Below, piece after piece: positions 9,303 through 52,633 of a stretch of 64,000 nucleotides of DNA (within the stretch, counting starts at the first letter, position 1; each line of letters starts with the position of its first letter). The notes below the pieces were generated by a model, which saw nothing but the letters and a program-made list of their open reading frames with translations, was not told where the DNA came from and made no database searches. A program made the position numbers and the translations under genes. This DNA comes from Thermoplasmata archaeon (GTDB taxonomy: Archaea > Thermoplasmatota > Thermoplasmata > Lutacidiplasmatales > UBA184), in the NCBI GenBank assembly GCA_022750115.1, contig JAKIWI010000002.1, positions 45,221-109,220 of the forward strand. Direction: 5' to 3'.

Positions 9303-9437
9303 TCGGCTCCGACACTTTCGGGGGGGATTAACCGTTCCCACCTGCGCGTCGTGTCGCGACTTAGCCTGCCCCGAAGGTCGCCCGGAGCGGTGTGTCGCCG
9401 AAAGGATCCGGGAGTCCACCGGGTCGGTCCGCCCGGG

Positions 9438-37243: not shown

Positions 37244-37663
37244 ATCCGGGCGTCCAGTTCGGTTTCCCGCTCGTTCGGTATCCTGGCGCGGCGCCGAATC
37301 GCCCCACCGGGGTCACCCGTTGTCTGACGAGCGACGCTTTTGCAACGGTCGAGTGCCCCAACGTTCGCCAACCCGGTGGAATCGGGGGTTGGCGGGGGGA
37401 TGGCCCCGGTCGGATTCGAGCCGTAGACTCGAGAGAGAGTCGTACCGGTCCACTCGAAAGCGGCGGAAGTCCGTCCGGGTGAGTGTCTCGATACGGCGCA
37501 CGACGCTCCCGTCCGAATGGGTGGCGTCCACGAGGACGAACCGCCCGCGACGATGGAACGCGGGGGGAGGGGCCGAAGCCCCAGCGACTTCGAAGCCCGA
37601 ATCGGGCCCGGCGCACGAGCTACCAGGTCCGGCCCGAACCGGCGGGGACCCGCCGTGCCGCAG
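37244..37663. other. Gap of about 0.4 kb without a recognisable gene
   Basis: Frames here are short and Arg/Ser/Pro-rich, as expected from random high-GC sequence. I see no RNA gene or repeat. Confidence 0.45.
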
Positions 37664-40316: not shown

Positions 40317-40420
40317 CGATTCGCGACCCCCGGCGGCTCGATGCGAGGGTGTTCCGCGACTTTAGTTCATCCGCACCGCGGTTGCCTCGATTCGTGACCG
40401 GCGGTCTGTCGGTTCTGGGG

Positions 40421-40470
40421 TAGTACCGAGCCGGACCGTGCCATTTTTGCGACAGAATCGGCTCCAACCC
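40421..40470 (+). repeat. Degenerate att-like repeat, type B (outermost)
   Basis: TAGTACCGAGCCGGAC followed by GTGCCATTTTTGCGACAGAATCGG lines up with the repeat at 51699 (core with three changes, then TGCCAT, CGACAGA). The core is weakly kept, but the following 30 bases agree well. It marks the probable outer edge of the array. Confidence 0.55.
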
Positions 40471-40767
40471 AAGGGGCCGGGAGGGGGGGGGTCTCGTCAA
40501 TGTTGGGGTTTCCCCCGCATCAATTCCGTCTCCCGTTGCGGCCGTGGTCCGTGTCAATTGTGGCGGAAGGGAGTCAAAGGTACCTGCCGGCGAAGAAGAG
40601 TACGCTTCCCCTGAGCCAACTCGCTGGCATCGGCTGTCTCCCGAGATTGTTCGGCGAGCGACGTTCGGACGGTCGCGGCCACTCGCCCCGAGCCTGCGTG
40701 CGAGCGCAACTTGGCCTCCGTCTACCCGCACGGAGCGGGACTCGAAGGAGGGTATGAGTCATATGTG

Positions 40768-40780
40768 AGACATTATGTCT
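40768..40780. promoter_or_regulatory. Palindrome AGACAT-T-ATGTCT upstream of HTH-MNT gene
   Basis: A perfect 6+1+6 palindrome ends four bases before the GTG at 40785, and GTGAGAC is repeated on both sides. A CATATG at 40760-40765 could be the TATA element. A candidate operator for the HTH domain encoded just downstream. Confidence 0.4.
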
Positions 40781-40784
40781 GTAC

Positions 40785-41384
40785 GTGAGACAACCGATGC
40801 GTTTCCACCGTTCGCTCGACTTGGTGCTTACTGGCCCCACCCACCTGCGGATCCTCCGCGCACTCTGGATGAATTCTGCCCGACGGCTGACTGGACGCGA
40901 GATTGCACGGGAGGCGAGAGTCTCGGCCGCCCAGACCGCTCGGGTGCTGAATGACCTCCAAGATTCGGGCATCGCAACTGCGGAAGCAGCCGGAAGGGCG
41001 TTCACCTGGCGATGGAATCAGGACCATGTTTGGGCAGCCCCGATTCAGCGGCTGTTCGAGGAGGAGGCTCGTATTCCCGCCGATCTACTCCGAGAACTCG
41101 CCGAAATGCTCCAGGGATTGCCGGTCAAGAGAGCAACCTTGTTCGGGTCGATCCCTCGAGGTCAAGAGCGAGGTGATAGCGACATTGATCTCTTCATCGA
41201 AACTCGAACCGGTGAGTCGGCCGAAATCGTGCGCGACCAGCTTGCCCACCTTCGAACGCGCCTGTGGCGAAAGTACGGGAACCCGCTCTCACCCATCGTC
41301 ATGACTACCGCGGAGGTCCGACAGGGTGCGGGCACCGAGCTTCTCCGGGCGATTCAACGCGAGGGAGTTCTCATCCAACACTAG
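40785..41384 (+). CDS. HTH-nucleotidyltransferase fusion (MNT-type antitoxin)
   Basis: 199 residues from a GTG (ATG at 40797 possible). The N-terminal winged HTH (RRLTGREIAREARVSAAQTA, about 34-53) is joined to a minimal nucleotidyltransferase domain with GSIPRGQERGDSDIDLF at 121-137, the catalytic GS...DxD signature. In MNT-HEPN modules the MNT protein neutralises the HEPN toxin, in known cases by AMPylation. The HTH fusion suggests autoregulation. The HEPN-like partner starts 9 bp downstream. Together they fill the outermost cassette. Confidence 0.85.
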   Translation: MRQPMRFHRSLDLVLTGPTHLRILRALWMNSARRLTGREIAREARVSAAQTARVLNDLQDSGIATAEAAGRAFTWRWNQDHVWAAPIQRLFEEEARIPADLLRELAEMLQGLPVKRATLFGSIPRGQERGDSDIDLFIETRTGESAEIVRDQLAHLRTRLWRKYGNPLSPIVMTTAEVRQGAGTELLRAIQREGVLIQH

Positions 41385-41392
41385 GGGCATCG

Positions 41393-41815
41393 ATGGCTCG
41401 AGTCAGAAATCAACGGAAAAGCCGATTTGTCGTCTACCTGAGCCGAGCTCGCCAGCAGGAGCGGCAGTTGGCCGTAGCGCTCGCGCATCATCGGTGGGAT
41501 GCGATCGGTCTCTCTGCGGTCCACCTCACCATTGCCTCGGTCGATGCTGTCACCTGCGCAAAGCTCGGTCAGGTCTGGAGCGGGGAGGACCATGCGGGCG
41601 CGGTCGACCTTCTCCGAGACACTGGCGTCGCCGGCGCCGAAGTGACGTCTCGTCAAGTCGCCTCGATCTTGGAGTCGAAAACTCGGGTGGAGTACGGCGC
41701 CGAAGCAGCGTCCGGCCCACGAGCCACCGAGATGTGCAAGCAGGCGAAACGAGTCTTCGAGTGGGCGGTCGCCACTCTTGGGTCCGAGGAAGTAGACCAA
41801 ACTCACCGGCATTGA
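41393..41815 (+). CDS. HEPN-like domain protein, partner of HTH-MNT
   Basis: 140 residues, all helical. VYLSRARQQERQLAVALAHH then WDAIGLSAVHLTIASVDAVT fits the HEPN helices, and TRVEYG near residue 102 followed by RATEMCKQAKRVFEWA matches the last helices seen in MNT-linked HEPN proteins. The canonical R-x4-6-H RNase motif is not complete; Arg is present in RVEYG but no matching His follows. It may be an atypical toxin or an inactive partner. Confidence 0.7.
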   Translation: MARVRNQRKSRFVVYLSRARQQERQLAVALAHHRWDAIGLSAVHLTIASVDAVTCAKLGQVWSGEDHAGAVDLLRDTGVAGAEVTSRQVASILESKTRVEYGAEAASGPRATEMCKQAKRVFEWAVATLGSEEVDQTHRH

Positions 41816-41892
41816 ACGTTGAGGGCCAGCGACTCGGCGGTTATTCCGGGTCGACGCGCGCCGTCGGGTCGTCGTGACACGCGGTTGAGATC

Positions 41893-41937
41893 TAGCCCCA
41901 AGCGGATTCGCTTCCTGTTGCAGAACAATAAGGATAC
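41893..41937 (+). repeat. att-like repeat, type A
   Basis: TAGCCCCAAGCGGATTCG (one change from the tRNA-Gln 3' end) followed, without gaps relative to the other type A copies, by a 27-base segment containing CTGTTGCAGA and ending GGATAC. It separates the HTH-MNT/HEPN unit from the DinB/VOC unit. Confidence 0.75.
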
Positions 41938-42183
41938 CCCCCTGACGGAGACGGGTCCGTGGTGCACCGGGACCCACGACCTTTCCCGGATTCTTGTTCC
42001 CGGTCCGATCGACAGCCCCTCTCCCGCAAAGTTCAGGCCGAAAGAGTGGGGAGGCGCGTTCCGCAAGGTTCCCGCCGGGAGGCGCGCCCGACGGATGCCG
42101 AGAGGGCGATCAGCTCGGGAGGGGGGCGGGAACCGAAGCAGGCGATTTGCCCACCCCAAGTGGTCGGGGCCGAGTTTTCGTTC

Positions 42184-42717
42184 TCATTCGGCGAGTGCGC
42201 TACTGAACCAGGAGCGTGTCGGTGCGTCGACGTCCATTTGCCAAAAGAGAGCGTTCATTTCGCCCCGGTGCTGCAGCTCCTCCTCCACTAGGTGCCAGAT
42301 AATCGTTCGAAGGTTCACCTTCATCTCGAAGGGTTCGCCATTCCCTTGAACCCCTCGGACCACGAAACTCCGGTCGAGCCGAGAGGTGGTCAGTGACTTC
42401 GCGAGTTTCCGATTCGAGTGCGCGATTCGGCGGACCTCTCTTCCAATTTCGGCCTTGGAGAGGCCGCCTTTCACTTCTTGGTGGGACTCCTGGCGATTCT
42501 GAGGCACGCTCTCGAGCCACCACACATTGTTGTCAAGGATGTGAAGGAAGATGTCTTGAACGGACGGGAACGATGCGCCGCGGTCTTTGATTCGATCCTT
42601 CAGAGGGAGATTGAGCAAGGTCTCCGCGTAGCCCGATCGAGTGTCAATCAGCCAATCGATCCATGTGCGCGCGAGGTCTACCTCCGTAACTCTTCGGCCC
42701 GTCCCCCTCCTCGGCAT
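42184..42717 (-). CDS. DinB/YfiT-like four-helix metal-binding protein
   Basis: 177 residues. The DinB-superfamily helices are recognisable: WIDWLIDTRSGYAETLLNLP, then SVQDIFLHILDNNVWWLE with the first His, and IIWHLVEEELQHRGEMNALF with the other two His ligands. Such proteins act in small-thiol-dependent transfer or damage responses, but the substrate is unknown here. It lies six bases downstream of the VOC gene on the minus strand and shares its cassette. Confidence 0.82.
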   Translation of the reverse strand: MPRRGTGRRVTEVDLARTWIDWLIDTRSGYAETLLNLPLKDRIKDRGASFPSVQDIFLHILDNNVWWLESVPQNRQESHQEVKGGLSKAEIGREVRRIAHSNRKLAKSLTTSRLDRSFVVRGVQGNGEPFEMKVNLRTIIWHLVEEELQHRGEMNALFWQMDVDAPTRSWFSSALAE

Positions 42718-42723
42718 CTCGGC

Positions 42724-43122
42724 TCACTCCTTCGGGAAATGCGAAATCTCCCAGAGGTTGCCCTCCGGGTCCTCGAAAAAAGCGTACCGCTGTCCGTTGC
42801 TTCGGGTCGCCGGAGGTTGCACAAACCGAACTCCCTTCTGACGCAACTCCTCATAGGCGCGGTCCGCATCCTCGAGGAAAACGGCGAAGTAGTTGCGCTG
42901 AAGTAGGCTCTCGCCGGGGCGAACCCGTTCCTTCGGAATCTCTTGTGCGAGCCCCTCCGCGGAGACGAGGGCGAGCCCGAGACCAGGTTTGTCATCGAAT
43001 TTCAGATAGGCGAACTCGTCAGATAGCTCCATGAGTTTCAGTCCAATCTTGTCCCGGTAGAACTCGGCGCATTTTCTCACATTGCGCACGGTCAAGGCGT
43101 GGGCGTTTACGTGGTCAATCAT
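42724..43122 (-). CDS. VOC family protein, cassette-borne
   Basis: The ATG at 43122 gives 132 residues. Text: DHVNAHALTVRNVRKCAEFY, YFAVFLEDADRAYEELRQKG and FFEDPEGNLWEISHFPKE; the first His and terminal Glu occupy VOC metal-ligand positions. A minus-strand CTTTATTT at 43143-43150, about 24 bp upstream, indicates a leaderless start here rather than at the TTG at 43134. Glyoxalase or resistance-type function is possible; first gene of a two-gene unit with the DinB-like gene. Confidence 0.87.
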   Translation of the reverse strand: MIDHVNAHALTVRNVRKCAEFYRDKIGLKLMELSDEFAYLKFDDKPGLGLALVSAEGLAQEIPKERVRPGESLLQRNYFAVFLEDADRAYEELRQKGVRFVQPPATRSNGQRYAFFEDPEGNLWEISHFPKE

Positions 43123-43351
43123 GGCCGCCGGCAAGATAGCTGAAATAAAGATTCTGGCCCAGAGCGCTGAACCACCCTCCGAGCATTCTCGTGGGTGACC
43201 GTGGCCGGCTGATTTTCATTGAGGTCGCGCGCAGTCGATGACCGACCGCGGGTAGGCTGCGGGTCGCGCGCGAGAGGCCACATCGCCTCGCCAGGATACC
43301 CTCACTGTGCGAGACCCCCCGGCATTGGTCGACGCGGAGACCGCTAACGGT

Positions 43352-43410
43352 TAGCCCCGGTCGGAATCGAGTCATGGCCCGAGCGGGACGATCTGCGAAC
43401 GAATTCGAAC
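43352..43410 (+). repeat. Degenerate, possibly composite att-like repeat
   Basis: TAGCCCCGGTCGGAATCGAG is followed 24 bases later by GCCCGAGCGGGACGAT, which matches the core of the type B copies, and then by AATTCGAACCC, which resembles the T-arm region. Two overlapping degraded copies are the simplest reading. It lies upstream of the first VapBC pair. No GGGTAC block follows. Confidence 0.4.
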
Positions 43411-43474
43411 CCACCCATCGTCCTCAACCTGAGCCATGAAGGCGTCTCGCCGGGCTGGGCCGCTCCGGTGACTT

Positions 43475-43482
43475 CATATAAT
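43475..43482 (+). promoter_or_regulatory. TATA box of vapBC copy 1
   Basis: CATATAAT at 43475-43482 lies about 26 bp before the vapB ATG at 43504. The second copy has GATATAAC at the matching place, and both continue to TTGCAGATTGTATGAA, so the promoter was duplicated with the genes. Confidence 0.65.
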
Positions 43483-43503
43483 CGGTAACTGTTTGCAGAT
43501 TGT

Positions 43504-43743
43504 ATGAAGCTCATCCAGACGCGCATTCCCGAAGCGGAGTATGACCTGCTTCGCCGCAAGGCAAGGGCCGAAGGGAAGACGATGCAGGAGTGGATCCGCA
43601 CCGCCATCCGAAACCGGCTACTGCCGGACGAGGTGGATCCGGCTGACCCAATCTTCGGCGCGTTCCCGCTCGTCCCCGGAAAGGGTCCCAAGGTCGACGT
43701 GGCGGAGCGTCACGACGAGCTCCTGTACGGTCCCCTTCGATGA
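43504..43743 (+). CDS. vapB: VapB-type antitoxin, copy 1
   Basis: 79 residues. MKLIQTRIPEAEYDLLRRKA followed by EWIRTAIRNRLLPDE is a ribbon-helix-helix DNA-binding domain; the tail DPIFGAFPL, KVDVAERHDELLYG is the toxin-binding part. The stop overlaps the vapC start as ATGA. By hand count it is about 87% identical to the protein at 49529. Likely represses its own promoter and blocks the PIN toxin. It carries a leaderless promoter of its own. Confidence 0.9.
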   Translation: MKLIQTRIPEAEYDLLRRKARAEGKTMQEWIRTAIRNRLLPDEVDPADPIFGAFPLVPGKGPKVDVAERHDELLYGPLR

Positions 43744-44150
43744 TTCTGGTCGACACGGGGGCTTGGTACGCCCTCACCGACCCGCAGGAACGACACCACG
43801 GCCATGCGGTGGCTCTGTTTGCTCGGTTGACCAAAGGTGAGCACGGTCGAATGGTGACGAGCGACTACATCCTCGACGAGACGTACACCCTCTTGCGGAT
43901 GCGCTTGGGGATCGAGCCGGTGAAACGGCTGCGAGGTCTTCTCGGGCAATCTTCAAGCGTTCAGATGGTCCGAGTTTCTGACACCGACTTCGAGCGTTCG
44001 TTGGATCTCATGATTTCCCACGAGGACAAGCGTTGGAGTCTCACAGATTGCACGAGCTTCGTGCTCATGCGAGAATTGGAGATTGGAGACGCGTTTACTT
44101 TCGATCACAACTTTATCGAGGCCGGTTTTCGGGTGGTTCCGGATTCCTAG
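43740..44150 (+). CDS. vapC: VapC-type PIN-domain toxin, copy 1
   Basis: 136 residues. PIN acids: D5 in LVDTGAWYAL, E47 in YILDETYTLLRMR, D102 in SLTDCTSFVLM and D121 in TFDHNF. VapC toxins are metal-dependent ribonucleases, commonly cutting tRNA or rRNA. It is translationally coupled to vapB and nearly identical in length and sequence (about 87% by hand count) to the copy at 49765. The pair fills its cassette. Confidence 0.92.
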   Translation: MILVDTGAWYALTDPQERHHGHAVALFARLTKGEHGRMVTSDYILDETYTLLRMRLGIEPVKRLRGLLGQSSSVQMVRVSDTDFERSLDLMISHEDKRWSLTDCTSFVLMRELEIGDAFTFDHNFIEAGFRVVPDS

Positions 44151-44203
44151 AACCGCCTCCCAGCCCTCAACAGGCCCGGGTCCATCTTCCCAAGGAGGGG
44201 AAA

Positions 44204-44248
44204 CAGCCCCGAGCGGATTCGCCTACTGTTGCAGACTTAGTGGGATAC
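44204..44248 (+). repeat. att-like repeat, type A
   Basis: CAGCCCCGAGCGGATTCG followed by CCTACTGTTGCAGA and, after seven bases, GGGATAC. Apart from its first base the 18-base core is identical to the tRNA-Gln 3' end. Ends the first VapBC unit. Confidence 0.8.
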
Positions 44249-44423
44249 ACCAACGGCAGTGAAGGGGGGGGTGTCTCGAAGAGAGTGGGGTCGGATTGCT
44301 GTCCTCCGTTCCCGGGTGGCTGGCCAACCCATCCACCGTGAGAGTGTCGGGCTGACCACAGGGTATCGGCACCATGAGGTTCCCGCCCTCCCAAGGCACT
44401 TGCAGGTGAGTTGCGGATCAAGG

Positions 44424-45134
44424 CTACCTCAGCATCAATGGCCCAACTGTCCCACCAAACGATCCGCTTCCAACCGCGGTCAATCCGTAACCGGCGAGAC
44501 CGTCAGGGAGTGCCGAGGATGAACCGACGTCCAGGACGAGCATCATGGTCGTGGTGAGAACCGCAGACGGCGACCGGGGCGAAATCGCATCTCCGCATGC
44601 CGAGGGTGTGCACGACACCCAGCCGCCGATTGCGGTGGTCTGCGCTATGCCCCTTCCCTCGCTGTCAAGCAACGTAACCGAGACGTAGGGGACAATCCCG
44701 CCACCATTCTCGTCAAGCTGGAATCGAATCGCGGTGATTGTCAGGCCACTGGAGGTTCCATTCATACCAACGATCTGACAGTACTCCGTTCCCTCGGCGG
44801 GCACTCGACAGCCCGGCTGAGCGGAGGCTCCCGCACTCACATTGAACGCGGTGACGTTGCCGAATGCGAACGCGGTACCGAGCGGGGTGGAGGCGGACGG
44901 GCCAAGAGGGCAGTAAACCCACCAGGCATTGCAGTCGCTGCCGGGCGGGGGATGATAGTAGTCGAAGGTGGCAACGAGAAGGAAGCAGGCTACCGCGAGA
45001 ACCGTGAGGAGGGCCCACAACCCCCTCCTTGAGGGGGGGCGAGGGCGGGCGGAACCGACCGCCGACGGCGGCGAGAGCGAATGGGGTTCCGATGGGGGTG
45101 GAGGGGGGAGCGGGGGCGGCGATTCACCGGGCAT
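44424..45134 (-). CDS. Membrane-anchored exported protein, unknown function
   Basis: 236 residues. A cytoplasmic Pro-rich start (several PPPP runs) leads to one membrane helix (about 39-58), then an extracellular domain with FDYYHPPPGSDCNAWWVYCP, paired cysteines and several N-x-S/T sites. This Pro-rich N-terminus plus single helix layout is common in archaeal membrane-anchored proteins. It is the only gene in its cassette and points toward the tRNA-distal end. No recognised domain. Confidence 0.6.
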   Translation of the reverse strand: MPGESPPPLPPPPPSEPHSLSPPSAVGSARPRPPSRRGLWALLTVLAVACFLLVATFDYYHPPPGSDCNAWWVYCPLGPSASTPLGTAFAFGNVTAFNVSAGASAQPGCRVPAEGTEYCQIVGMNGTSSGLTITAIRFQLDENGGGIVPYVSVTLLDSEGRGIAQTTAIGGWVSCTPSACGDAISPRSPSAVLTTTMMLVLDVGSSSALPDGLAGYGLTAVGSGSFGGTVGPLMLR

Positions 45135-45320
45135 CGCGAGTCCGAGTCACGGATTGTCTTCGGTGGAAATCTGACTCCGGGTATAGAAAAGGTCCGGTAC
45201 TGGCGCAACGTGACTAGGGTTGAGTTCTCCGGGACGGGCGGCCAAACTAGCCCGCGCTACACCTCATCCGGCGCGCAACGCCGGTGGGGGTGACGCGGCC
45301 TGACTTCAAGGGACGAGACC

Positions 45321-45365
45321 TAGCCCCGAGCGGGTTCACCTCCTGATACACAGTGTTAGGGATAC
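45321..45365 (+). repeat. att-like repeat, type A
   Basis: TAGCCCCGAGCGGGTTCA followed by CCTCCTGATACACAG and GGGATAC at the same distance as in the other type A copies, without gaps. Separates the membrane protein unit from the HxlR/SRPBCC unit. The 45135-45320 stretch before it has a candidate minus-strand TATA (TATAG near 45182) but no gene. Confidence 0.75.
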
Positions 45366-45449
45366 TCTACTGACGTTCGAGCCTGACGTTTGAGCAAGAT
45401 GGAGGGCGCCTCTTAGTTCAGTGCGAGCGTGGGAATCTGGAATGCTCCA

Positions 45450-45908
45450 TTACTCTCTCCTTCTCGATCCTGAACGGTCCTCACCCTTGCCCTGGCTACC
45501 TGGGCCCACCATGACTTCGAAAGTACTCCTTCCTGCGATCCGGGTCTCGTCGAGCGATGGTTCTACCGAGCGCCATTTGGCACCATAGTGCCGCAAGGTG
45601 AGCAGGACAGGCAGGACGTCGGCCGCTTTCTGCGAGGGTTGCCACCGACTGAAGCCACGTCGGTGCTCAGCTCGAACGATGAACCCACCGCGCGGAAGCT
45701 CGTTGAGTCGTAGAGCGAGTATCCGCTTACTCATCCCCGGCGTGGAACGGAGCATCTGATTGAACCTCTGGGGGCGGCCTAGAGCGATATTCGTCAGGAC
45801 CAGGAGCGCCCACTTGCGACCCAACACTCCAAGGCTCGCTTGTAAGGGATTATCGGGGAAGTTAAGGGTGATCCGAGGGCGCTGCGATTGCGGACGACTC
45901 CTAGCCAC
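45450..45908 (-). CDS. HxlR-family winged-helix regulator
   Basis: 152 residues from a GTG. HxlR core: ASLGVLGRKWALLVLTNIAL, RFNQMLRSTPGMSKRILALR, then LNELPRGGFIVRAEHRRG as wing. Usually HxlR proteins sense redox-active or toxic small molecules. Several usually conserved positions are changed (GGKWALLIL appears as GRKWALLVL). It is divergent from the SRPBCC gene with a 62-bp gap containing a single TATA-like GATATAG near 45940, so both may be controlled from it. Confidence 0.85.
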   Translation of the reverse strand: MARSRPQSQRPRITLNFPDNPLQASLGVLGRKWALLVLTNIALGRPQRFNQMLRSTPGMSKRILALRLNELPRGGFIVRAEHRRGFSRWQPSQKAADVLPVLLTLRHYGAKWRSVEPSLDETRIAGRSTFEVMVGPGSQGKGEDRSGSRRRE

Positions 45909-45970
45909 TAGCGCCCTACTTTCGTTCGCCTACTGAAAGATATAGCGGGGTCCGGTATGAGAAGGGTAAG

Positions 45971-46432
45971 GTGGGGGCCCGGATGGTCTACTTGGAGGAC
46001 GAAGGGAGTGAGTTCGACGCGCCGATCGACTTCGTGTGGAAGTACGTCTTCGGTGGGGAAAAGCACGATGGTGCCCACAAGACCACTCGGAAACCCCAGT
46101 TCAAGAAGATCTCAGACATTACGATCGAATATTCGTCGGAGCGGCTGCTCCGAGGCAAATGGGCGCCCGACCGCATGCGCATCTCGATGGTTCCGCCTAT
46201 CGCGGTGGTGACGGAATGGCTGGAGGGCGTTCTTGCCGGATCGAAGCTCGTCTATGTGTACTCCCCGAGGGGAAACAAGACCGGCATCGACGTGTACGGA
46301 GAGTTCACTTCGGCGACGCTCGCTCCGAGCGAGGTCGAGGCGGCGGCCCGTGAATTCCTCGATACGGAGTACGGCGCCGACGCTCCGGCGATTCGGACGG
46401 CGTACCAGAAGGCGAAGGGCACTTCCGCGTGA
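45971..46432 (+). CDS. SRPBCC (START-like) domain protein
   Basis: 153 residues from a GTG at 45971, 28 bp after TATA at 45941-45944, so leaderless. FDAPIDFVWKYVFGG is the first strand and helix of the SRPBCC fold, strands such as ISDITIEYSSERLLRG follow, and a long C-terminal helix AAAREFLDTEYGADAPAIRTAYQ closes it. SRPBCC proteins bind hydrophobic ligands; the divergent HxlR regulator may sense the same compound. Ligand not known. Confidence 0.75.
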   Translation: MGARMVYLEDEGSEFDAPIDFVWKYVFGGEKHDGAHKTTRKPQFKKISDITIEYSSERLLRGKWAPDRMRISMVPPIAVVTEWLEGVLAGSKLVYVYSPRGNKTGIDVYGEFTSATLAPSEVEAAAREFLDTEYGADAPAIRTAYQKAKGTSA

Positions 46433-46586
46433 CGCGTGGGTAGGACCGACTCCGTGCCCCGGGCTGTCCACCGGCGAGAGCGATGCCACCCCCCTCGATT
46501 GTAGGGATTCAGCAGGACAGGATCGGACTCGCGGACCGGTAGCCGGATACCTCGTCGGGGGCTGGGGATTGGCATCGGTCGTGGAT

Positions 46587-46635
46587 TAGCCCCGAGCGGG
46601 ACTAGTGGGAATCACGACCTTTCGGGTACCATTCC
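46587..46635 (+). repeat. att-like repeat, type B
   Basis: TAGCCCCGAGCGGGACTA followed by GTGGGAATCACGACC and GGGTACCATTCC. Aligns without gaps to the repeat at 50231 over 49 bases. In type B the core TAGCCCC-GAGC-GGGACTA is itself a near-perfect hairpin with seven-base arms. Confidence 0.8.
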
Positions 46636-46703
46636 ACGAAAGCTGGGATCTGCCTAGGTTGACGAGGGCGGCCGCCGCGGGACAATGTCTGGAATGTTTA
46701 GGT

Positions 46704-46718
46704 CTATGGACGCCATAG
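46704..46718. promoter_or_regulatory. CTATGG-acg-CCATAG operator-like palindrome (copy 1)
   Basis: CTATGG (46704-46709) and CCATAG (46713-46718) are exact reverse complements. The same element with AGC as spacer lies at 50350-50364 in front of the paralogous antitoxin. It sits between a possible TATA-like GTTTAG and the ATG at 46727, the place where an archaeal repressor would act. Confidence 0.55.
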
Positions 46719-46726
46719 ATGCCGCC

Positions 46727-46933
46727 ATGCCGGCGGATGCGATCACGAGTATTCAGGTGCACGAGTCGACCCGTCGGCTCTTCGAGAGCCGCCAGCGAGG
46801 CGGGGAGAGCTACGACGTCGTGATCCCCGACGTCATCGACCCGGAGCCGATCGAGGCGGAGAATCGAGAGTTCGATCGGAGGATGCGGGATGGAGATCCG
46901 CTTGAATCGTGGACGGCAGGCCCGCTTTTTTGA
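46727..46933 (+). pseudogene. Decayed orphan antitoxin, paralogue of the gene at 50373
   Basis: 68 residues from the ATG at 46727. ITSIQVHESTRRLFESRQRG then ESYDVVIPDVIDPEP and EFDRRMRDG match the intact antitoxin at 50373, but Leu-to-Pro changes (VIPDVIDPEP versus VILDLIDQEP) would break the helix and the C-terminus differs after RRMRDGDP. No RelE toxin follows; the AAA-TolB-TPR gene begins instead. It is most likely a remnant of a toxin-antitoxin pair. A longer reading starts at 46685. Confidence 0.6.
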
Positions 46934-46964
46934 AGTCCTCGGTGTCCTCTCGCACGGCCCGGAA

Positions 46965-49376
46965 ATGTCCGCCGACCCTACGAACTCCGGACCAAGAATT
47001 GAGGCGGCTGCGATCGGAATGCTTGTGGGCCTCGACGCGATGGACCTCGGGCGCGTCGTCGTCGCCGGTGACTACGTTCGGTTCGATGAGACCTCTCGGA
47101 GCTCGCTGAAGGATTTCCGCGGAAAGGTCAATGCCGGTCTCTCCGGTGCCAGCCACCGCCCGACCAACCTCTTGATCTGGGGCCCCCCCGGGAGCGGCAA
47201 ATCATTCCTCGTGCAGCAGGTCGCTCGCACCACGGCCCAGTCGACACGGCTGGTCGAGATCAATGTCGCATCGGTGACCGCCAACGAGTTCCGGTCCAAG
47301 CTTGCCGAAGCAGCCGCCGGGCCGACCGACGCAATTTGTCTGATCGACGAGGTCGACTCCCGACCGGCCGAAACCTGGCCCTACGAGCTTCTGTTGCCGG
47401 CCCTCGAGCCTACGTCGTCCCTTCCCCACCGAATGGTGTTCTGTCTCGCCGGCAGCGGAGGGGCGGATCTCGAGGAGTTCAGGGGAGGGATCCGGGCCCG
47501 CCCGAAAGGTCCGGACCTTCTCAGTCGGATCCCCCGCGGGAACGAGGTCTCGATCCCTGCCTTGGGAGTTGGAGACAGGCTCTGTGTGGCGGCGATTCAG
47601 CTCCTGGCGGCTGCTTCCGACGAAGGGCACCGCGTGCGGGAGGTCGAGAAGTTTGCCCTGTTCTACCTCGCGACCAACGCCGATCTCCAGACCGCACGAC
47701 AGCTGAGAGCCGCCGCCGTGTCGGGCGCGCTCCGGATCCCACCCGGAGAGGACCGGTTCCGGTTCGACCATCTGTTCGCCCCGGGGGACCCAGAAAACAA
47801 GAGATTCTGGTACGAGCATCACGATGCGCGACTGTCGCTGGCGGGAGCCTTCCTGGCAGTCACGCCCCCGCAATCCGCACACTCCGTCGGCGTCGACCGG
47901 GAAGGCCCACCGAGCCCGACCCCCGATCCGACCGGCGCGGGGGAGTCTCGGCATCGGATCGCCATCCTGCCGTTTCGGAACATCAGCCCTAACCCTTCGG
48001 ACTCCTATTTCTCCGAGGGCTTGACAGAAGAGCTGATCTCGACCGTCTCCAAGATCGGTGCCCTTCGGGTGATCGCCCGGACATCGGTGATGCGATTCCG
48101 TGACGGGACAAAGAGCGCGGCCGAAACCGCGCGGGAGCTTCGCGTCGGCTCGCTCCTGGAGGGTAGCGTCCGACGGGCCGGCGACGACCTTCGCGTCACG
48201 GCGCAACTCATCGATGTTGCTACCGAGGAGCCGGTTTGGTCCATCACCTTCGACCGCCGTCTGGAAAATGTGTTCGCCATTCAGGAGGAGCTCGCGCGCC
48301 GCATTTCGGAGTCGCTCCACGTGCAACTGGTAGGCACCGAGGGGGCCACTCTCGGCCGAACACCGACGCCGAACCTCGAGGCGTACGACCGGTATCTCCA
48401 GGGCCGCCAACGCTTCTTCGAGGCGACGGAGCCAGGATTTCACGCGGCAATCACGCTCTTCGAACAAGCGATCGCTCTCGATCCGCAGTTCGCATTGGCC
48501 TACTGCGGGTTGGCCGAGGCCCAAGCCCTGCAGGGAAACCGGGGGGACGTGCCCCTGGGCCCGGCCCTGGAACGGGCGGAGCGTTCGGTCCAAATGGCCC
48601 TTCGACTGGACCCCGATCTTGGGGAGGCACATGCCGCGATGGGCCCGATCCTGTACAATCGGTATCGCTGGAAGGAAGCCCTGCGAGAGCTGGACCGCGC
48701 GGTGGCGCTGGAGCCGAACAACGTCCAAGCCCAGTTCTGGAGGGCCGTTGCGACGGGCGCCGTCGGTCGCCCGGAGGACGGTCTCCCCAACGCACTTCGG
48801 GCGGTCGAGCTGGATCCCCTCAATCCCCGGCGTCGCGTGATTCTCGCCCAGCAGTACTACTGGATGCGACAGTTCGACCGCGCGATCGACATTCTGGGGA
48901 GCCCTCTTCTCGAGTCCCAAAAGGACTCTCAGCAAATGCTCGCGTACTCTCTACTCCTTAGCGGGAGAGCCGAGGAGGCCATCTCGGCGGCGGAGCGAGC
49001 CGTCGCCGACCTGTCGACGCCCTCCGTGCAGCCGCTGATCGATCGAGCCGCGATCTTCGCCCGAGCCGGGAAACCGGCGGATGCGCGGGAAATCCTTGGG
49101 GACCTGCTGGAGCGTCGGAAGGAGCACGCTGACGTTCCCGCCGGCGCGATCGGCTGGGTCCTCGGGGCGCTCGGCGAGTTCGGGAGCGCCGCGGACTGGT
49201 ACGTGCGAGCGCACGAAGAGGGGAGTATCGTCGGGGTGCCGGACCTCCTGGTGGATCCCTTCCTTGATTCCTTCCGGACATCCGAACGGTACCCCTCCCT
49301 GCTGAAGTTGTTCGACCTGACGCAGGCTCCTCTCCCCGTCGAGGGCACCCCCCGCTCCGCCCTGTCGCGCCGCTAG
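46965..49376 (+). CDS. AAA ATPase - TolB/FlgO-like - TPR fusion protein
   Basis: 803 residues from the ATG at 46965 (the frame is open from 46890 but that overlaps the antitoxin remnant). Walker A GPPGSGKS (73-80) and Walker B CLIDEVDS (125-132) define an AAA ATPase. RIAILPFRNISPNP, then YFSEGLTEELISTV and LRVIARTSVMRF at about 330-455 match the TolB/FlgO-like domain that accompanies TPRs in bacterial adenylate-cyclase-type proteins; here the cyclase is replaced by an ATPase. TPR repeats fill about 465-715. No membrane helix. It is the largest cassette gene and probably bacterial in origin; function unknown, signalling or defence conceivable. Confidence 0.8.
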   Translation: MSADPTNSGPRIEAAAIGMLVGLDAMDLGRVVVAGDYVRFDETSRSSLKDFRGKVNAGLSGASHRPTNLLIWGPPGSGKSFLVQQVARTTAQSTRLVEINVASVTANEFRSKLAEAAAGPTDAICLIDEVDSRPAETWPYELLLPALEPTSSLPHRMVFCLAGSGGADLEEFRGGIRARPKGPDLLSRIPRGNEVSIPALGVGDRLCVAAIQLLAAASDEGHRVREVEKFALFYLATNADLQTARQLRAAAVSGALRIPPGEDRFRFDHLFAPGDPENKRFWYEHHDARLSLAGAFLAVTPPQSAHSVGVDREGPPSPTPDPTGAGESRHRIAILPFRNISPNPSDSYFSEGLTEELISTVSKIGALRVIARTSVMRFRDGTKSAAETARELRVGSLLEGSVRRAGDDLRVTAQLIDVATEEPVWSITFDRRLENVFAIQEELARRISESLHVQLVGTEGATLGRTPTPNLEAYDRYLQGRQRFFEATEPGFHAAITLFEQAIALDPQFALAYCGLAEAQALQGNRGDVPLGPALERAERSVQMALRLDPDLGEAHAAMGPILYNRYRWKEALRELDRAVALEPNNVQAQFWRAVATGAVGRPEDGLPNALRAVELDPLNPRRRVILAQQYYWMRQFDRAIDILGSPLLESQKDSQQMLAYSLLLSGRAEEAISAAERAVADLSTPSVQPLIDRAAIFARAGKPADAREILGDLLERRKEHADVPAGAIGWVLGALGEFGSAADWYVRAHEEGSIVGVPDLLVDPFLDSFRTSERYPSLLKLFDLTQAPLPVEGTPRSALSRR

Positions 49377-49395
49377 CCCTTCCCGGAGGCGAAAC

Positions 49396-49445
49396 TAGCC
49401 CCGAGCGCAGCTGTCGGCGAAACGATCCGAACCCTGGGCAATCCC
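49396..49445 (+). repeat. att-like repeat, degenerate type B
   Basis: TAGCCCCGAGCGCAGCTG keeps the first 12 bases of the core exactly, then diverges, with TGGGCAATCCC at the position of the type B GGGTACGATCCC block. Separates the AAA-TolB-TPR unit from the second VapBC unit. Confidence 0.6.
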
Positions 49446-49528
49446 GGCGGGTTCGCCCGCGGAGAGGCGCTGGGGAGCCGCGAAGCCATCCGCCTACTTG
49501 ATATAACAAGTAATCAATTGCAGATTGT

Positions 49529-49768
49529 ATGAAACTCATCCAGACACGTATTCCCGAGGCGGAGTACGACCTGCTGCGCCGCAAGGCCAAGGCAGAAGGA
49601 ATCACGATGCAGGAGTGGATTCGCGGGGCGATCCGGAGCCGTCTGCTGCCCGACGAGGTGGATTCGGACGACCCACTCTTCCGTGCGTTCCCGCTCGTGC
49701 GCGGAAAGGGCCCGAAGGTCGACGTGGCAGAGCGTCACGACGAACTCTTGTACGGTCCTCTCCGATGA
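49529..49768 (+). CDS. vapB: VapB-type antitoxin, copy 2
   Basis: 79 residues, differing from the 43504 copy at about ten positions (for example T33G in WIRGAIRSRL). Ribbon-helix-helix start MKLIQTRIPEAEYDLLRRKA is unchanged, as is the last part KVDVAERHDELLYGPLR. TATA-like ATATAA at 49501-49506 is 23 bp before the ATG. The stop overlaps vapC as ATGA. High similarity means the two loci might cross-regulate; changes in the toxin-binding tail (FRAFPLVRG versus FGAFPLVPG) may set specificity. Confidence 0.9.
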   Translation: MKLIQTRIPEAEYDLLRRKAKAEGITMQEWIRGAIRSRLLPDEVDSDDPLFRAFPLVRGKGPKVDVAERHDELLYGPLR

Positions 49769-50175
49769 TCCTCATCGACACCGGGGCGTGGTACGCCCTC
49801 GCGGATTCCCAGGAGCGCCACCATGGCCACGCGGTGGCGTTGTTCGGTCGGTTGACCAACGGGGAGCATGGTCGCATGCTCACGAGCGACTACATCCTCG
49901 ACGAGACCTACACCCTTCTCCGGATGCGTCTGGGAATCGAGCCCGTGAAACGCCTTCGTGGCCTGCTGAGACAATCGTCGAGCGTTCAGGTGGTTCGGGT
50001 ATCGGACAACGACTTCGAGCGGTCCGTGGACCTCATGCTCGCCCACGAGGACAAACGCTGGAGCCTCACCGATTGTACGAGCTTCGTCCTCATGCAGGAA
50101 TTGGAGGTCGCAGATGCCTTCACCTTCGACCACAACTTTGCGGAGGCCGGCTTTCGTGTGCTGCCACGTTCCTAG
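49765..50175 (+). CDS. vapC: VapC-type PIN-domain toxin, copy 2
   Basis: 136 residues with the same PIN acids as copy 1 (D5, E47, D102, D121) and 18 substitutions by hand count, mostly conservative. The start is the ATG overlapping the vapB stop. It presumably cleaves the same RNA target. Its location in a separate cassette 6 kb from copy 1, with its own repeat on each side, shows that whole cassettes were duplicated or acquired twice. Confidence 0.92.
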   Translation: MILIDTGAWYALADSQERHHGHAVALFGRLTNGEHGRMLTSDYILDETYTLLRMRLGIEPVKRLRGLLRQSSSVQVVRVSDNDFERSVDLMLAHEDKRWSLTDCTSFVLMQELEVADAFTFDHNFAEAGFRVLPRS

Positions 50176-50230
50176 ATTCGTTCCTGGCCCGTTGGGGCGG
50201 AACCGACCACCTCCGGTCGCAAGCGGGATC

Positions 50231-50279
50231 TAGCCCCGAGCGGGACTAATGCGAAGCTCGACAGATTGGGTACCATTCC
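50231..50279 (+). repeat. att-like repeat, type B
   Basis: TAGCCCCGAGCGGGACTA followed by ATGCGAAGCTCGACAG and GGGTACCATTCC. Matches the 46587 copy without gaps. Separates the second VapBC unit from the RelBE-like unit. Confidence 0.8.
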
Positions 50280-50349
50280 AGCTTTCCCGGTGGGCTGTCT
50301 GAGCTGATGCACCCCGTCGCAGAGGGACGAGCGGATGAAACGATTAAGT

Positions 50350-50364
50350 CTATGGAGCCCATAG
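50350..50364. promoter_or_regulatory. CTATGG-agc-CCATAG operator-like palindrome (copy 2)
   Basis: CTATGG (50350-50355) and CCATAG (50359-50364) are exact reverse complements. They sit between GATTAAG near 50343 and the ATG at 50373. Because the palindrome is kept exactly while its spacer changed relative to copy 1, it looks selected. Confidence 0.6.
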
Positions 50365-50372
50365 ATGACGGC

Positions 50373-50588
50373 ATGCCGACGGACGTGATCACGAGCATCC
50401 AGGTCCACGAGTCGACGCGGCGGCTCCTCGAGAGTCGAAAGCGTGGTGGAGAGAGCTACGACGACGTGATCCTCGACCTCATAGACCAGGAGCCTACGGA
50501 GGCGGAAATTCGAGAGTTCGACCGGAGGATGCGGGAGGGAGGTCCGGGCATCCCCCTCGAGGAGACACGCAAGCGGCTCGGACTGTAG
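50373..50588 (+). CDS. Putative antitoxin of a RelBE-like pair
   Basis: 71 residues from the ATG at 50373, about 28 bp after a TATA-like GATTAAG; ATGs at 50352 and upstream exist but lie within or before the palindrome. ITSIQVHESTRRLLESRKRG gives a strand and helix, ESYDDVILDLIDQEPTEAE a second helix, and PLEETRKRLGL a C-terminal segment that would bind the toxin. Similar small archaeal antitoxin-like proteins precede RelE toxins. The stop is directly followed by the toxin GTG. Confidence 0.78.
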   Translation: MPTDVITSIQVHESTRRLLESRKRGGESYDDVILDLIDQEPTEAEIREFDRRMREGGPGIPLEETRKRLGL

Positions 50589-50882
50589 GTGCCCCCGGCG
50601 TACCGGGTCGAGCATCGCCCGGCGGCCGAGCGCGAGCTCGAGCTGCTCCCGCGGGATACGCAGATCCGCGTGATAGCGGCCCTCGTGCGCCTATCGTTTC
50701 GACCCACGGGCGGAGACCCGTTGCTCGACATTCGACAAGTTCGAGATGCTGCGGGGCTTTGGCGGCTGTCCGTCGCGGGTTGGAGGGTGTTCTATCGGCT
50801 GGACGGCCAGGTGGTGTCGATCGTGGGCTATCGGCCCCGAAGTTCCTCCACCTACTCCGACCTCCGAAAGCTCCCTCGGTAG
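50589..50882 (+). CDS. RelE/ParE-type toxin
   Basis: 97 residues, GTG start immediately after the antitoxin stop. RVEHRPAAERELELLPRDTQ is the helical hairpin, DPLLDIRQVRDAAGLWRLSV and GWRVFYRLDGQVVSIVGYRP are the beta sheet, and the R-x-x-Y end is retained. The residues fit an mRNA-interferase fold. The pair fills its cassette. Confidence 0.85.
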   Translation: MPPAYRVEHRPAAERELELLPRDTQIRVIAALVRLSFRPTGGDPLLDIRQVRDAAGLWRLSVAGWRVFYRLDGQVVSIVGYRPRSSSTYSDLRKLPR

Positions 50883-51045
50883 ACTCGCGCTGCCGATATC
50901 GGATACGACAGTCCCCGGCACCAATCGGTCGATGGGAGCCTAACCCGCCGTCGGGCCGGCCCGGACACCCCGAACGGGGGTTCGACGTAGGAGGAATGGG
51001 CGGGCGCGCCTCGATATGGTCGACTCGCGCACACGCGTCGACGGG

Positions 51046-51090
51046 TAGCCCCGCGCGGATTCGCCTGCTACCGCAGAAGGACTTGGATAC
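51046..51090 (+). repeat. att-like repeat, type A
   Basis: TAGCCCCGCGCGGATTCG followed by CCTGCTACCGCAGA and TTGGATAC; ungapped against the other type A copies. Separates the RelBE-like unit from the SRPBCC-like unit. The 50883-51242 gap holds no gene otherwise. Confidence 0.75.
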
Positions 51091-51242
51091 ACCCCCCTCG
51101 ACGCTGTCCTGACGATTGGGGGCCAACGCACCGCCATTTTCGGCCCGGGGGCGCTCTCACTTCAGCTCCCCTAACTCCTGCCGGGACGAAAGAGGGAAGC
51201 CAAACCCCCGTATAGTACGCCGTTCGGAATCGTGCGATCCAG

Positions 51243-51701
51243 ATGTCGGGTAAGCTCGTAACGCTTCGATTCCGAAAAGTCGTGCTTGCACCAGCGAGGT
51301 TCGTCTTCGCCTGGTGCACGGATTATCGCGAAGACGACGACCAAATCACGAAATCGATCTATCACTATGAGGCACGAATCTTACTTCGCGAGCCGACGAG
51401 GATTGTTCGGACGATCACCGTACCGGGGCGTAACCGAAACCGGAGCACGGATGTGGAAATCATTTCGCTGCAGCCGCCGGATCGGTGGCATCTGCGCAAA
51501 CTAAGCGTCACCGACGACGAAACGGGGAGCTACCGACTCATCCGCCAGGGTTCCTCGCGCACCCTAATTGAGATGCGATTTCGGAGGAAATGCAAAACCA
51601 GACGCATGCCAAATCTAGGGAATTATCGGGCCCTCTTCAGTCGGGTCTGGGACCGCTACGTCGATGAGATCGAGCGGGAATACCACCGGGAGAAGGTCTA
51701 G
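51243..51701 (+). CDS. SRPBCC-like protein, stop codon formed by an att-like repeat
   Basis: 152 residues. FRKVVLAPARFVFAWCTDYR is the first strand and helix of an SRPBCC-type fold, followed by several amphipathic strands (IVRTITVPGRNRN, STDVEIISLQPPDRWHL) and a terminal helix RALFSRVWDRYVDEIEREYH. TATA at 51211-51214 lies 30 bp before the ATG, indicating a leaderless message. The TAG stop at 51699-51701 is the first three bases of the next repeat, so the gene runs exactly to the cassette edge. Ligand not known. Confidence 0.75.
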   Translation: MSGKLVTLRFRKVVLAPARFVFAWCTDYREDDDQITKSIYHYEARILLREPTRIVRTITVPGRNRNRSTDVEIISLQPPDRWHLRKLSVTDDETGSYRLIRQGSSRTLIEMRFRRKCKTRRMPNLGNYRALFSRVWDRYVDEIEREYHREKV

Positions 51702-51748
51702 CCCCGAGCGGGACTATGCCATCTCTACGACAGAGTGGGTACGATCCC
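51699..51748 (+). repeat. att-like repeat, type B
   Basis: TAGCCCCGAGCGGGACTA followed by TGCCATCTCTACGACAGA and GGGTACGATCCC, one base longer than the other type B copies. Its first three bases serve as the stop codon of the SRPBCC-like gene. Innermost repeat before the tRNA. Confidence 0.8.
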
Positions 51749-51973
51749 GACGAACCCGGATTGACTCGAGGACCCAACCGGTGGGGGGGGGTCGCCTTGC
51801 GGCGGGTCCGACGCCGGTTTCTTCGAAGGCCCGGGTCGGATTCGGTAGCGCTTGCGGAGGTACCGAGATGCGCCACGCGACTGGCGGGATTCCTCGTCGG
51901 ACTGGACCCCGGATTGGCTCCCAGCTGGACGGCTGAATCGGGTCCATTCCCAGGCTCGGCCGCGCGACAAGGG

Positions 51974-52249
51974 CTACTTTGGGAGCCGCTGATACACGTT
52001 CGCCCGGTGTCCAAACCGGATGAATCGCGCTTCCGCTCCGTCCCAGCGGAAGATGCCTCGGTAGGGGCCGACCTTCAGCGTCCAGAGTCCACGTCCCCCT
52101 TCGAGAGGGTGCGTGTCGAACTCACCGGGCAACCGCAGGGTGGTCGACCTTTGGAACCGAAGCAGGAGCTGATCGAACCTGGTTCGGGGCGAGATCGGAA
52201 GTCGGCGGAGCGACGCAAACCCCTCCGGGCTGAGGGTTACCCGGACCAT
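51974..52249 (-). CDS. RelE/ParE-like toxin
   Basis: 91 residues. LSPEGFASLRRLPISPRTRF and a second helix give the hairpin; EFDTHPLEGGRGLWTLKVGP and YRGIFRWDGAEARFIRFGHR give the sheet, ending in NVYQRLPK. The text is a typical RelE superfamily sequence. It begins directly where the antitoxin ends. The pair occupies the cassette next to the tRNA and points away from it. Confidence 0.83.
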   Translation of the reverse strand: MVRVTLSPEGFASLRRLPISPRTRFDQLLLRFQRSTTLRLPGEFDTHPLEGGRGLWTLKVGPYRGIFRWDGAEARFIRFGHRANVYQRLPK

Positions 52250-52468
52250 CTAGCGTCCCGGGAGCCCGAGCCGCCGGCGGGCAGTCGTGTACGAGATCGG
52301 GGGACGGGTCAGCTCTTGTTCGGCCCACGCAAGGAACTCCTTCGGCGGGACCGCGTCCATGAACTCCTCCAAGATCTCGGCGTACGTCCGACCCCCCGTC
52401 TTGTACAACTTGAGGCGACGAGCAATCGAAGTCGGTACCGTGATCGTCGTCGGCGAGTCCGCGAGCAT
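52250..52468 (-). CDS. Antitoxin of the RelE-like pair
   Basis: 72 residues. PTTITVPTSIARRLKLYKTG has a short strand then a helix, as in ribbon-helix-helix or related antitoxins, followed by YAEILEEFMDAVPPKEFLAW and ISYTTARRRLGL. The last Arg-rich piece parallels the RKRLGL tail of the antitoxin at 50373, so the two pairs may be distantly related. It abuts the toxin gene. TTGTTCCAATTGGGATAA just upstream includes a partial palindrome that may be its operator. Confidence 0.75.
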   Translation of the reverse strand: MLADSPTTITVPTSIARRLKLYKTGGRTYAEILEEFMDAVPPKEFLAWAEQELTRPPISYTTARRRLGLPGR

Positions 52469-52560
52469 GCCTCCTCAATTGTTCCAATTGGGATAACGGT
52501 TTCTGCGATCCGCCCTCGACAGGTAGATAGCAACGCCAGGGTGGGCTGAAGCGAGGAACG

Positions 52561-52633
52561 TAGCCCCGAGCGGATTCGAACCGCTGTCGCCGGCTCCAAA
52601 GGCCAGCATGCTTGGCCACTACACCACGGGGCT
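52561..52633 (-). tRNA. tRNA-Gln (anticodon UUG)
   Basis: On the minus strand a 73-nt cloverleaf can be drawn: acceptor AGCCCCG paired with CGGGGCT, anticodon stem CTGGC/GCCGG with loop CTTTGGA giving anticodon UUG, T-arm AGCGG-TTCGAAT-CCGCT, discriminator A at 52561. No CCA is encoded. A minus-strand CTTTTGTAA at 52657-52665 stands about 25 bp upstream as TATA element. Its last 18 nt are the source of the repeats in the adjacent array. Confidence 0.93.

What the first reader, a model, noticed from the sequence alone, without database searches (positions are those of the whole stretch)
40421..52633. Serial cassette array anchored on a tRNA-Gln gene, without a visible recombinase
Seen directly: at least eight clear and two degraded partial copies of the tRNA-Gln 3' end, all on the same strand and all beyond the tRNA 3' end, split 12 kb into ten units of 0.65-2.8 kb with one to two genes each. 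Known: integrases often use tRNA 3' ends as att sites and leave a repeat at the far edge. What is unusual is the number of successive units, their single-gene size, and the absence of integrase, transposase or replication genes. This resembles an integron cassette array in architecture but uses a tRNA end as recombination core and shows no fixed gene orientation. It may be a system in which a recombinase acting in trans captures small circular cassettes.
Basis: partly seen in the sequence, partly recalled or inferred. Interest (0 to 1): 0.95.

Follow-up and report, generated by a model that had tools for sequence, protein, structure and literature searches.

The report
tRNA-anchored gene-cassette array in archaea
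Behind a glutamine tRNA gene of this archaeon lie ten small units of mostly one or two genes, each ended by a copy of the tRNA's tail, and some of the same units recur in a different order in related species, so they likely hop in one at a time with the help of a recombinase they do not encode.

Summary
tRNA-Gln(TTG) (52560-52633, -) is followed by ten units of 653-2809 bp, each closed by a copy of the tRNA's last 13 bases on the tRNA strand: 8 copies with at most 1 mismatch against 0.05 expected. Of 63 units from 26 genomes of the family, 22 have a homologue in another genome, in shuffled order: here A-x-B, in G070 B-A-C, in G010 x-C-B. The best pairs match end to end and similarity stops at the cores. 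A, B and F are 81-87% alike between this genome and G070, the conserved 5' flank 73%. A 48-bp class 1 site marks many units; it was found in 3 of 104 genera sampled, one family. Contents include many toxin-antitoxin genes; ORFs lie 47 with, 46 against the tRNA. One of 63 units encodes a tyrosine integrase, one a remnant; this genome shows only XerA. Best reading: integrase-less mini-elements inserted at the tRNA end by a tyrosine recombinase in trans. It is not an integron; tandem ssrA islands of Dehalococcoides are the nearest precedent. Enzyme and circles are untested.

The parts
52560..52633 (-). tRNA-Gln(TTG), the primary attachment gene; the 13-base core 52561-52573 ends at its discriminator A
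51699..52560 (-). Unit 1 (cassette A, 862 bp): antitoxin-like ORF 52250-52468 (-, no Pfam match) and ParE/RelE-like toxin 51974-52249 (-, below Pfam cut-off); tail class 2/3, core 51699-51711
   Evidence: = G070 unit 2, 862 bp, 81% over the whole length
51046..51698 (-). Unit 2 (653 bp): one ORF 51243-51701 (+), SRPBCC-like by eye (no Pfam match); class 1 tail, core 51046-51058
50231..51045 (-). Unit 3 (cassette B, 815 bp): VapB-like antitoxin 50307-50588 (+, just below cut-off) and ParE toxin 50589-50882 (+); class 2 tail, core 50231-50243
   Evidence: = G070 unit 1, 816 bp, 87% over the whole length; G010 79%, without the head
49396..50230 (-). Unit 4 (cassette D, 835 bp): ribbon-helix-helix antitoxin-like 49529-49768 (+, below cut-off) and PIN toxin 49765-50175 (+); core 49396-49408
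   Evidence: G078 unit 81% over 648 bp; paralogue of unit 8
46587..49395 (-). Unit 5 (2809 bp): AAA-TPR protein 46890-49376 (+) and antitoxin-like ORF 46685-46933 (+, no Pfam match); its last 314 bp match the end of cassette B (77%); core 46587-46599
45321..46586 (-). Unit 6 (1266 bp): HxlR regulator 45450-45908 (-) and a 153-aa ORF 45971-46432 (+), SRPBCC-like by eye; class 1 tail, core 45321-45333
44204..45320 (-). Unit 7 (1117 bp): ORF 44424-45134 (-), membrane-like by eye; class 1 tail, core 44204-44216
43352..44203 (-). Unit 8 (852 bp): ribbon-helix-helix antitoxin 43504-43743 (+) and PIN toxin 43740-44150 (+); degenerate core 43352-43364
41893..43351 (-). Unit 9 (1459 bp): glyoxalase 42724-43134 (-) and DinB-family protein 42184-42717 (-); class 1 tail, core 41893-41905
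40420..41892 (-). Unit 10 (cassette F): nucleotidyltransferase 40785-41384 (+) and a following ORF 41390-41815 (+, HEPN-like by eye, no Pfam match); degenerate class 2/3 tail at 40420
   Evidence: (window 40741-41909 = G070 8644-9812, 86%)
36894..37288 (-). Possible older cassette (E) outside the stated array; homologous to a G070 unit and to the stretch beyond the last G010 site; weak core at 37400

Best explanation
The array is a stack of integrase-less gene cassettes that a tyrosine recombinase supplied in trans likely inserted, one circle at a time, into the 3' end of the tRNA-Gln(TTG) gene. Shown: each unit starts right after a copy of the tRNA core CCGCTCGGGGCTA and ends with its own tail (mostly an outer GTATCC- or GTACCC-type motif about 30 bp before the core, then a class-specific left arm) plus a new core; some whole units recur in other genomes at other array positions; in the best pairs similarity stops at the cores. 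Inferred: a circular cassette carries one tail-core-head site; recombination between its core and the tRNA core opens the circle, rebuilds an intact tRNA from the cassette's core, and pushes older cassettes outwards with the displaced core; later decay of old cores freezes distal units. The enzyme is most likely a tRNA-Gln-directed integrase brought by elements that occupy the same tRNA in related genomes; the host's XerA is the main alternative within this reading.
For: Repeats far beyond chance and on one strand. Class 1 site: 24 members aligned; in a search of 28 genomes, most of them picked for having the site, 41 hits at E<=0.001, 24 of them the training sites; of the other 17, 11 lie on a tRNA-Gln contig, on its 3' side and its strand (read off by eye). 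Unit homology: 22 of 63 units have a homologue in another genome covering at least half of the shorter unit (17 pairs); A 862/862 bp and B 815/816 bp match end to end. Breakpoints for A, B (G070) and C (G010-G070): identity 52-92% inside, 16-50% outside. Order: window A-U2-B, G070 B-A-C, G010 x-C-B; G070 tRNA|B|A against window tRNA|A looks like a filled/empty pair. Exchange between species: A 81%, B 87%, F 86% (window-G070) against 72.7% for 2.6 kb of conserved 5' flank; pyruvate kinase is 69% alike as protein. Integrases of one family (G004, G007, G039, fragment in G035) end next to tRNA-Gln-type attachment sites in relatives, and one lies inside a cassette array (G039). Contig ends fall within 3 kb of tRNA-Gln on its 3' side in 22 of 45 cases, on its 5' side in 7 of 45.
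Against: No circle, excision or live junction was seen. The window's genome (90% complete) has no tyrosine recombinase of PF00589 except XerA and no PF00239 serine recombinase; three more array genomes show a single XerA-like PF00589 hit and no PF00239 (G062, G067, G073), so arrays there may be inactive. Other recombinase families were not searched. Tails fall into at least two classes that share only the 13-bp core, which may mean more than one enzyme. In 15 of the 17 inter-genome pairs similarity fades before at least one unit end, and one pair is inverted. A (81%) is not far above the 78% of 390 bp of far-side flank (window-G070), and B between window and G010 (79%) equals the far-side backbone (78% over 4.4 kb). 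Six of the 17 non-training site hits lie on contigs without tRNA-Gln. The tRNA-Gln integrases' own sites have longer tRNA matches and other outer arms than the cassettes, and among the 31 recombinases compared only two array genomes (G035, G039) carry that family.
Confidence: 0.7

Rival explanations
1. Tandem accretion of formerly autonomous genomic islands: each unit came with its own tRNA-Gln integrase, which was later deleted.
For: Integrase-bearing elements do use this tRNA in relatives (G004, G007, G039). One G052 unit keeps a 42-residue integrase remnant near its distal end. Of 31 tandem ssrA islands in Dehalococcoides 15 lack an integration module (PMC3146451, passages read).
Against: Units of the same size and without integrase recur in different species at different positions (862/862, 815/816, 1125/1123 bp), so they probably moved in their present form. 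Only 1 of 63 units carries an integrase and 1 of 63 a remnant. Cassette tails differ from the sites of the integrase elements.
Confidence: 0.17
2. Host XerA mobilises the cassettes, as XerC/D is held to do for dif modules in Acinetobacter (a sub-case of the best explanation; its odds are part of that 0.7).
For: XerA is over the cut-off of the archaeal XerA model in the window's genome. The only PF00589 hit in G062, G067 and G073 scores like XerA (128-133 bits), and these four genomes show no PF00239. Class 2/3 sites look, by eye, like short inverted arms around a 6-bp centre, TAGTCC-CGCTCG-GGGCTA; archaeal dif sites have a 6-bp spacer (PMC2958812, passages).
Against: No dif site was found in 14 genomes with a Thermococcales-like pattern (14 hits against 12 for the control pattern), so likeness to dif is untested. 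Class 1 sites have an outer motif at a nearly fixed distance and a left arm like the tRNA's, which fits a tRNA-directed integrase better.
Confidence: 0.2
3. An integron (a cluster of attC sites without integrase) that happens to lie at a tRNA.
For: Array architecture, toxin-antitoxin content, almost no unit-borne recombinase; integrons are reported in archaeal genomes of nine phyla (PMC9668308, abstract and passages). The outer GTATCC and the core's GGGGCTA are complementary in 89% of cells, more than any slid pairing (57.5% at most).
Against: All 7 recombinases scanned stay below the integron-integrase cut-off (XerA 153 bits, cut-off 265). 0 of 63 units end with GTTRRRY and hold RYYYAAC (attC boxes, recalled). 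The consensus fold lacks an outer stem and has no double change; outer-stem pairing does not exceed shuffles (249 of 500 as high; covariation 101 of 500). Thermoplasmatota is not named in the main text of that paper.
Confidence: 0.02
4. The shared units reflect homologous recombination of larger array segments between species, with no site-specific step now active.
For: Paralogous units (4 and 8; G015 units 1 and 3) and a hybrid-looking unit 5 suggest that homologous exchange or duplication occurs.
Against: Order is reversed in both comparable pairs (A,B window against G070; B,C G070 against G010) and similarity ends at 13-bp cores in the best pairs, which single crossovers in long homology would not give.
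Confidence: 0.1

Closest known systems
Tandem ssrA genomic islands of Dehalococcoides (PMC3146451)
   Same: Rows of units downstream of one structural RNA gene, each closed by a copy of its 3' end; an extra conserved motif beside the repeat; number varies between strains; about half lack an integration module
   Different: There the vcr islands are about 12 kb and 16 of 31 islands encode an integration module with serine recombinases; here units are 0.46-4.2 kb, 1 of 63 encodes a tyrosine integrase, the host is an archaeon, and toxin-antitoxin genes are common
dif (pdif) modules of Acinetobacter plasmids (PMC13141974)
   Same: Small modules between short recombination sites, shuffled, often with toxin-antitoxin genes, enzyme in trans
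   Different: Mainly plasmid-borne, XerC/XerD sites in alternating order (partly recalled); no tRNA anchor; here all sites point the same way
Integrons and CALINs, including archaeal ones (PMC9668308)
   Same: Array of one- or two-gene cassettes added at a primary site; enzyme can be absent
   Different: No integron integrase over its cut-off, no attC boxes, no covarying hairpin, primary site is a tRNA gene, gene orientation unbiased
Archaeal tRNA-integrated elements with tyrosine integrases (PMC8371274)
   Same: tRNA gene as attB, tRNA restored on integration
   Different: Integrase-encoding elements; serial integrase-less units did not turn up in the passages read

Membership tests
Integron / CALIN | Integron integrase (intI) in the genome | tested here: not met
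   Only PF00589 protein found in the window's genome is XerA, over the XerA cut-off and below TIGR02249; the genome is 90% complete
Integron / CALIN | attC boxes RYYYAAC ... GTTRRRY at the unit end (recalled consensus) | tested here: not met
   0 of 63 units
Integron / CALIN | Site folds as a single-stranded hairpin | tested here: inconclusive
   Outer complement present (89% of cells) but no covariation over shuffles and not in the consensus fold
Integron / CALIN | Array of mobile cassettes at one primary site | tested here: met
Tandem tRNA/tmRNA-anchored genomic islands | Units bounded by copies of the structural RNA's 3' end | tested here: met
Tandem tRNA/tmRNA-anchored genomic islands | At least some units encode the integrase | tested here: met
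   In relatives only: 1 of 63 units (G039), plus G004 and G007 elements not among the 63
Tandem tRNA/tmRNA-anchored genomic islands | Variable content between genomes at a fixed locus | tested here: met
   Between species: shared far-side flank begins about 9 kb (G010), 17 kb (G070), 33 kb (window) from the tRNA
Xer/dif module | Sites resemble the host dif | tested here: inconclusive
   dif of this genus not found
Xer/dif module | Recombination needs Xer | not testable with these tools
   needs bench work

The most novel reading that the evidence does not exclude
A cassette-capture platform of archaea, independent of integrons, in which a tRNA gene is the primary site and the host's own XerA (or a dedicated trans-acting integrase) captures, stacks and exchanges one- and two-gene circles across genera.
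Probability: 0.3. Interest if true: 0.92.

Novelty: new variant of a known kind. Interest (0 to 1): 0.72.

Why it matters
It points to one- and two-gene units, many of them toxin-antitoxin pairs, moving as discrete cassettes between archaeal species without encoding a recombinase. If confirmed, these archaea have an integron-like gene bank of their own, built on a tRNA end, and the identity of the enzyme in trans becomes a direct bench question. The 48-bp class 1 site also gives a marker to find such arrays in other genomes.

Tried and rejected
Integron attC hairpin: suggested by the outer GTATCC / GGGGCTA complement, dropped. A dif site for XerA: a Thermococcales-like pattern (recalled) gave 14 hits against 12 for the control in 14 genomes. 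Sites in viral contigs: none with an exact 19-mer. Isolated copies elsewhere in the own genome: one search gives 14 hits with at most 1 mismatch, 9 on the window's array and tRNA, 5 elsewhere; the reversed control pattern gave 15. A Verrucomicrobia MAG hit (L077) scored 14.0 bits and was dropped as chance or contamination. L014 17865 scored 33.7 because it had entered its own training set and 18.3 when left out; it and L010 4640 were left out of the alignment of 24. A serine recombinase shared by array genomes: PF00239 in 3 of 8 searched (G010, G070, G078), none in G000, G015, G062, G067, G073. A single non-XerA tyrosine integrase shared by all array genomes: none seen, but only 31 of the hits were compared. 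Integrase families outside PF00589 and PF00239 were not searched.

Papers: nine searches in PMC open-licence papers only; no title or abstract listed describes an archaeal tRNA-anchored cassette array, which is no proof of absence. Seen: passages of PMC6563490, PMC9668308, PMC9287336, PMC3146451, PMC12302457, PMC8371274, PMC2958812; outline and abstract of PMC13141974; the rest as search listings.

Full report
What is there. The window lies in G000 contig C10 (27 contigs, 2.1 Mb, 90% complete). Exact matches to a 19-base class 1 core in named records are Thermoplasmata MAGs (AcS, SubAcS, JOPF, UBA61), 8 of 9 stretches; the ninth, Verrucomicrobia, was dropped. That these belong to the soil order Lutacidiplasmatales is my recall; PMC9287336 was seen in a listing and searched for mobile-element terms (none). 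tRNA-Gln(TTG) stands beside pyruvate kinase here and on the same contig in about two dozen of the 61 genomes sampled (read by eye). On its 3' side ten units follow, each ended by a copy of the tRNA's last 13 bases in the tRNA's orientation (one copy heavily decayed); counts and controls are.

Site anatomy. Read along the tRNA, a unit ends with a tail and a core. Class 1 tails have GTGTATCCC about 32 bp before the core and a sequence like CAACAGnAGGCGAAT just before it; 24 sites align over 51 columns with 77% mean identity. A scoring matrix puts 26 stretches above 30 bits (24 later used, 2 dropped) and the rest below 15, with no shuffled score above 4 in 523 kb. Class 2/3 tails carry GTACCC or GATACCC and TAGTCC or TAACCC before the core. 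Integrase elements have a longer tRNA match (GGTTCGAAT) and, in several, GGGCAAA/TTTGCCC arms. By a simple rule the tails of 63 units sort into 33 class 1, 9 class 2/3, 6 of the longer tRNA type and 15 others, some of them degenerate or near misses. The classes share only CCGCTCGGGGCTA, so exchange with the tRNA must fall there (inference). The core ends at the tRNA's discriminator base, so each insertion can restore the tRNA.

Mobility. I cut 63 units from 26 genomes (459-4212 bp, median 1473) and compared all with all by blastn: 22 have a homologue of at least 50% coverage in another genome (17 pairs, one inverted), 41 do not. Unit A of the window equals unit 2 of G070 and unit B equals unit 1 of G070, both end to end; unit C of G010 equals unit 3 of G070 except for its first 96 bp; D recurs in G078 and G039 without its ends. 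Window-edge tests (eight pairs): A, B and C drop to noise on both sides of their cores; the G010 copy of B lacks the head; D (two pairs), G008/G073 and G067/G078 lose similarity 25-150 bp before a core, so for these the exact breakpoint is not shown. Junctions are printed. Conserved neighbours are less alike than A, B and F: 5' flank 72.7% (window-G070), 69.2% (window-G010), 70.2% (G010-G070); far-side flank 78% (window-G070, 390 bp; window-G010, 4.4 kb), which is close to A (81%) and to B in G010 (79%). The 1.5 kb held for G078 does not contain pyruvate kinase, so no flank value exists for D. Window and G078 belong to different genera (G078 coincides with G375, g3). The shared far-side flank begins about 33 kb from the tRNA here, 17 kb in G070, 9 kb in G010, so the array is the tRNA-proximal part of a variable island.

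Cargo. In 52 units, 93 ORFs chosen by a GC-position score lie 47 with and 46 against the tRNA (the choice is heuristic, picked wrong frames in window units 4 and 10 and missed unit 2). Of 83 proteins scanned, picked by hand from these with corrections, 9 match ParE toxin, 6 PIN, 4 VapB, 4 ribbon-helix-helix and 5 guanylate cyclase at E<=0.01 (25 of 135 families are listed, so other families are not seen). The set includes the one integrase.

Enzyme. PF00589 finds only XerA in G000 and a single XerA-like hit in G062, G067 and G073; PF00239 finds nothing in these four nor in G015, and one or more in G010, G070, G078. Other array genomes have further integrases of different clusters. Four tRNA-Gln-adjacent integrases form one family of about 50% or more identity (one a fragment); three further members lie in stretches without a tRNA. 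Neither candidate is proven. I favour a visiting tRNA-Gln integrase because class 1 tails mimic the tRNA's left arm and bear outer motifs; XerA remains open.

Breadth. The class 1 site was found in 21 of 78 genomes of the genus and in 23 of 400 sampled from the class, all in one family, with strict filters that lose weak sites. Contigs end near the 3' side of tRNA-Gln more often than near the 5' side (22 against 7 of 45 within 3 kb; two contigs of unknown length were left out, both with the 3' side at the contig edge; the nearer-side test was not significant, p 0.14, Wilcoxon 0.027). This fits population-level variation but has other possible causes.

Verdict. Real, supported by comparative evidence for part of the units, and of known architectural kind (tandem RNA-gene islands), but in a reduced, nearly integrase-less cassette form in archaea.

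Noticed in passing
window 36894-37288: Possible fossil cassette outside the reported array; homologous to a unit of G070 and to the stretch beyond the last G010 site.
   Followed up: partly
window 46587-49395: Unit 5 looks hybrid: its last 314 bp match the end of toxin-antitoxin cassette B, but an AAA-TPR gene stands where B has its toxin.
   Followed up: partly
L102 around 8376 (G025 C11, near 904 kb): A tRNA-Gln type attachment site with a head arm, about 600 kb from tRNA-Gln, beside a broken integrase fragment of another cluster.
   Followed up: no
L090 (G015 C121): Two 2.36-kb cyclase cassettes in one array, 66% alike over nearly the whole unit.
   Followed up: no
L125 7075 (G080 C37): A good class 1 site on a contig without tRNA-Gln; five further non-training off-contig sites in other genomes.
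   Followed up: no
L004 339-362, L123 6748-6771: Some units begin with a second degenerate core 23 bp after the first (CGAATCCGACCGGGGCTATCCC).
   Followed up: no
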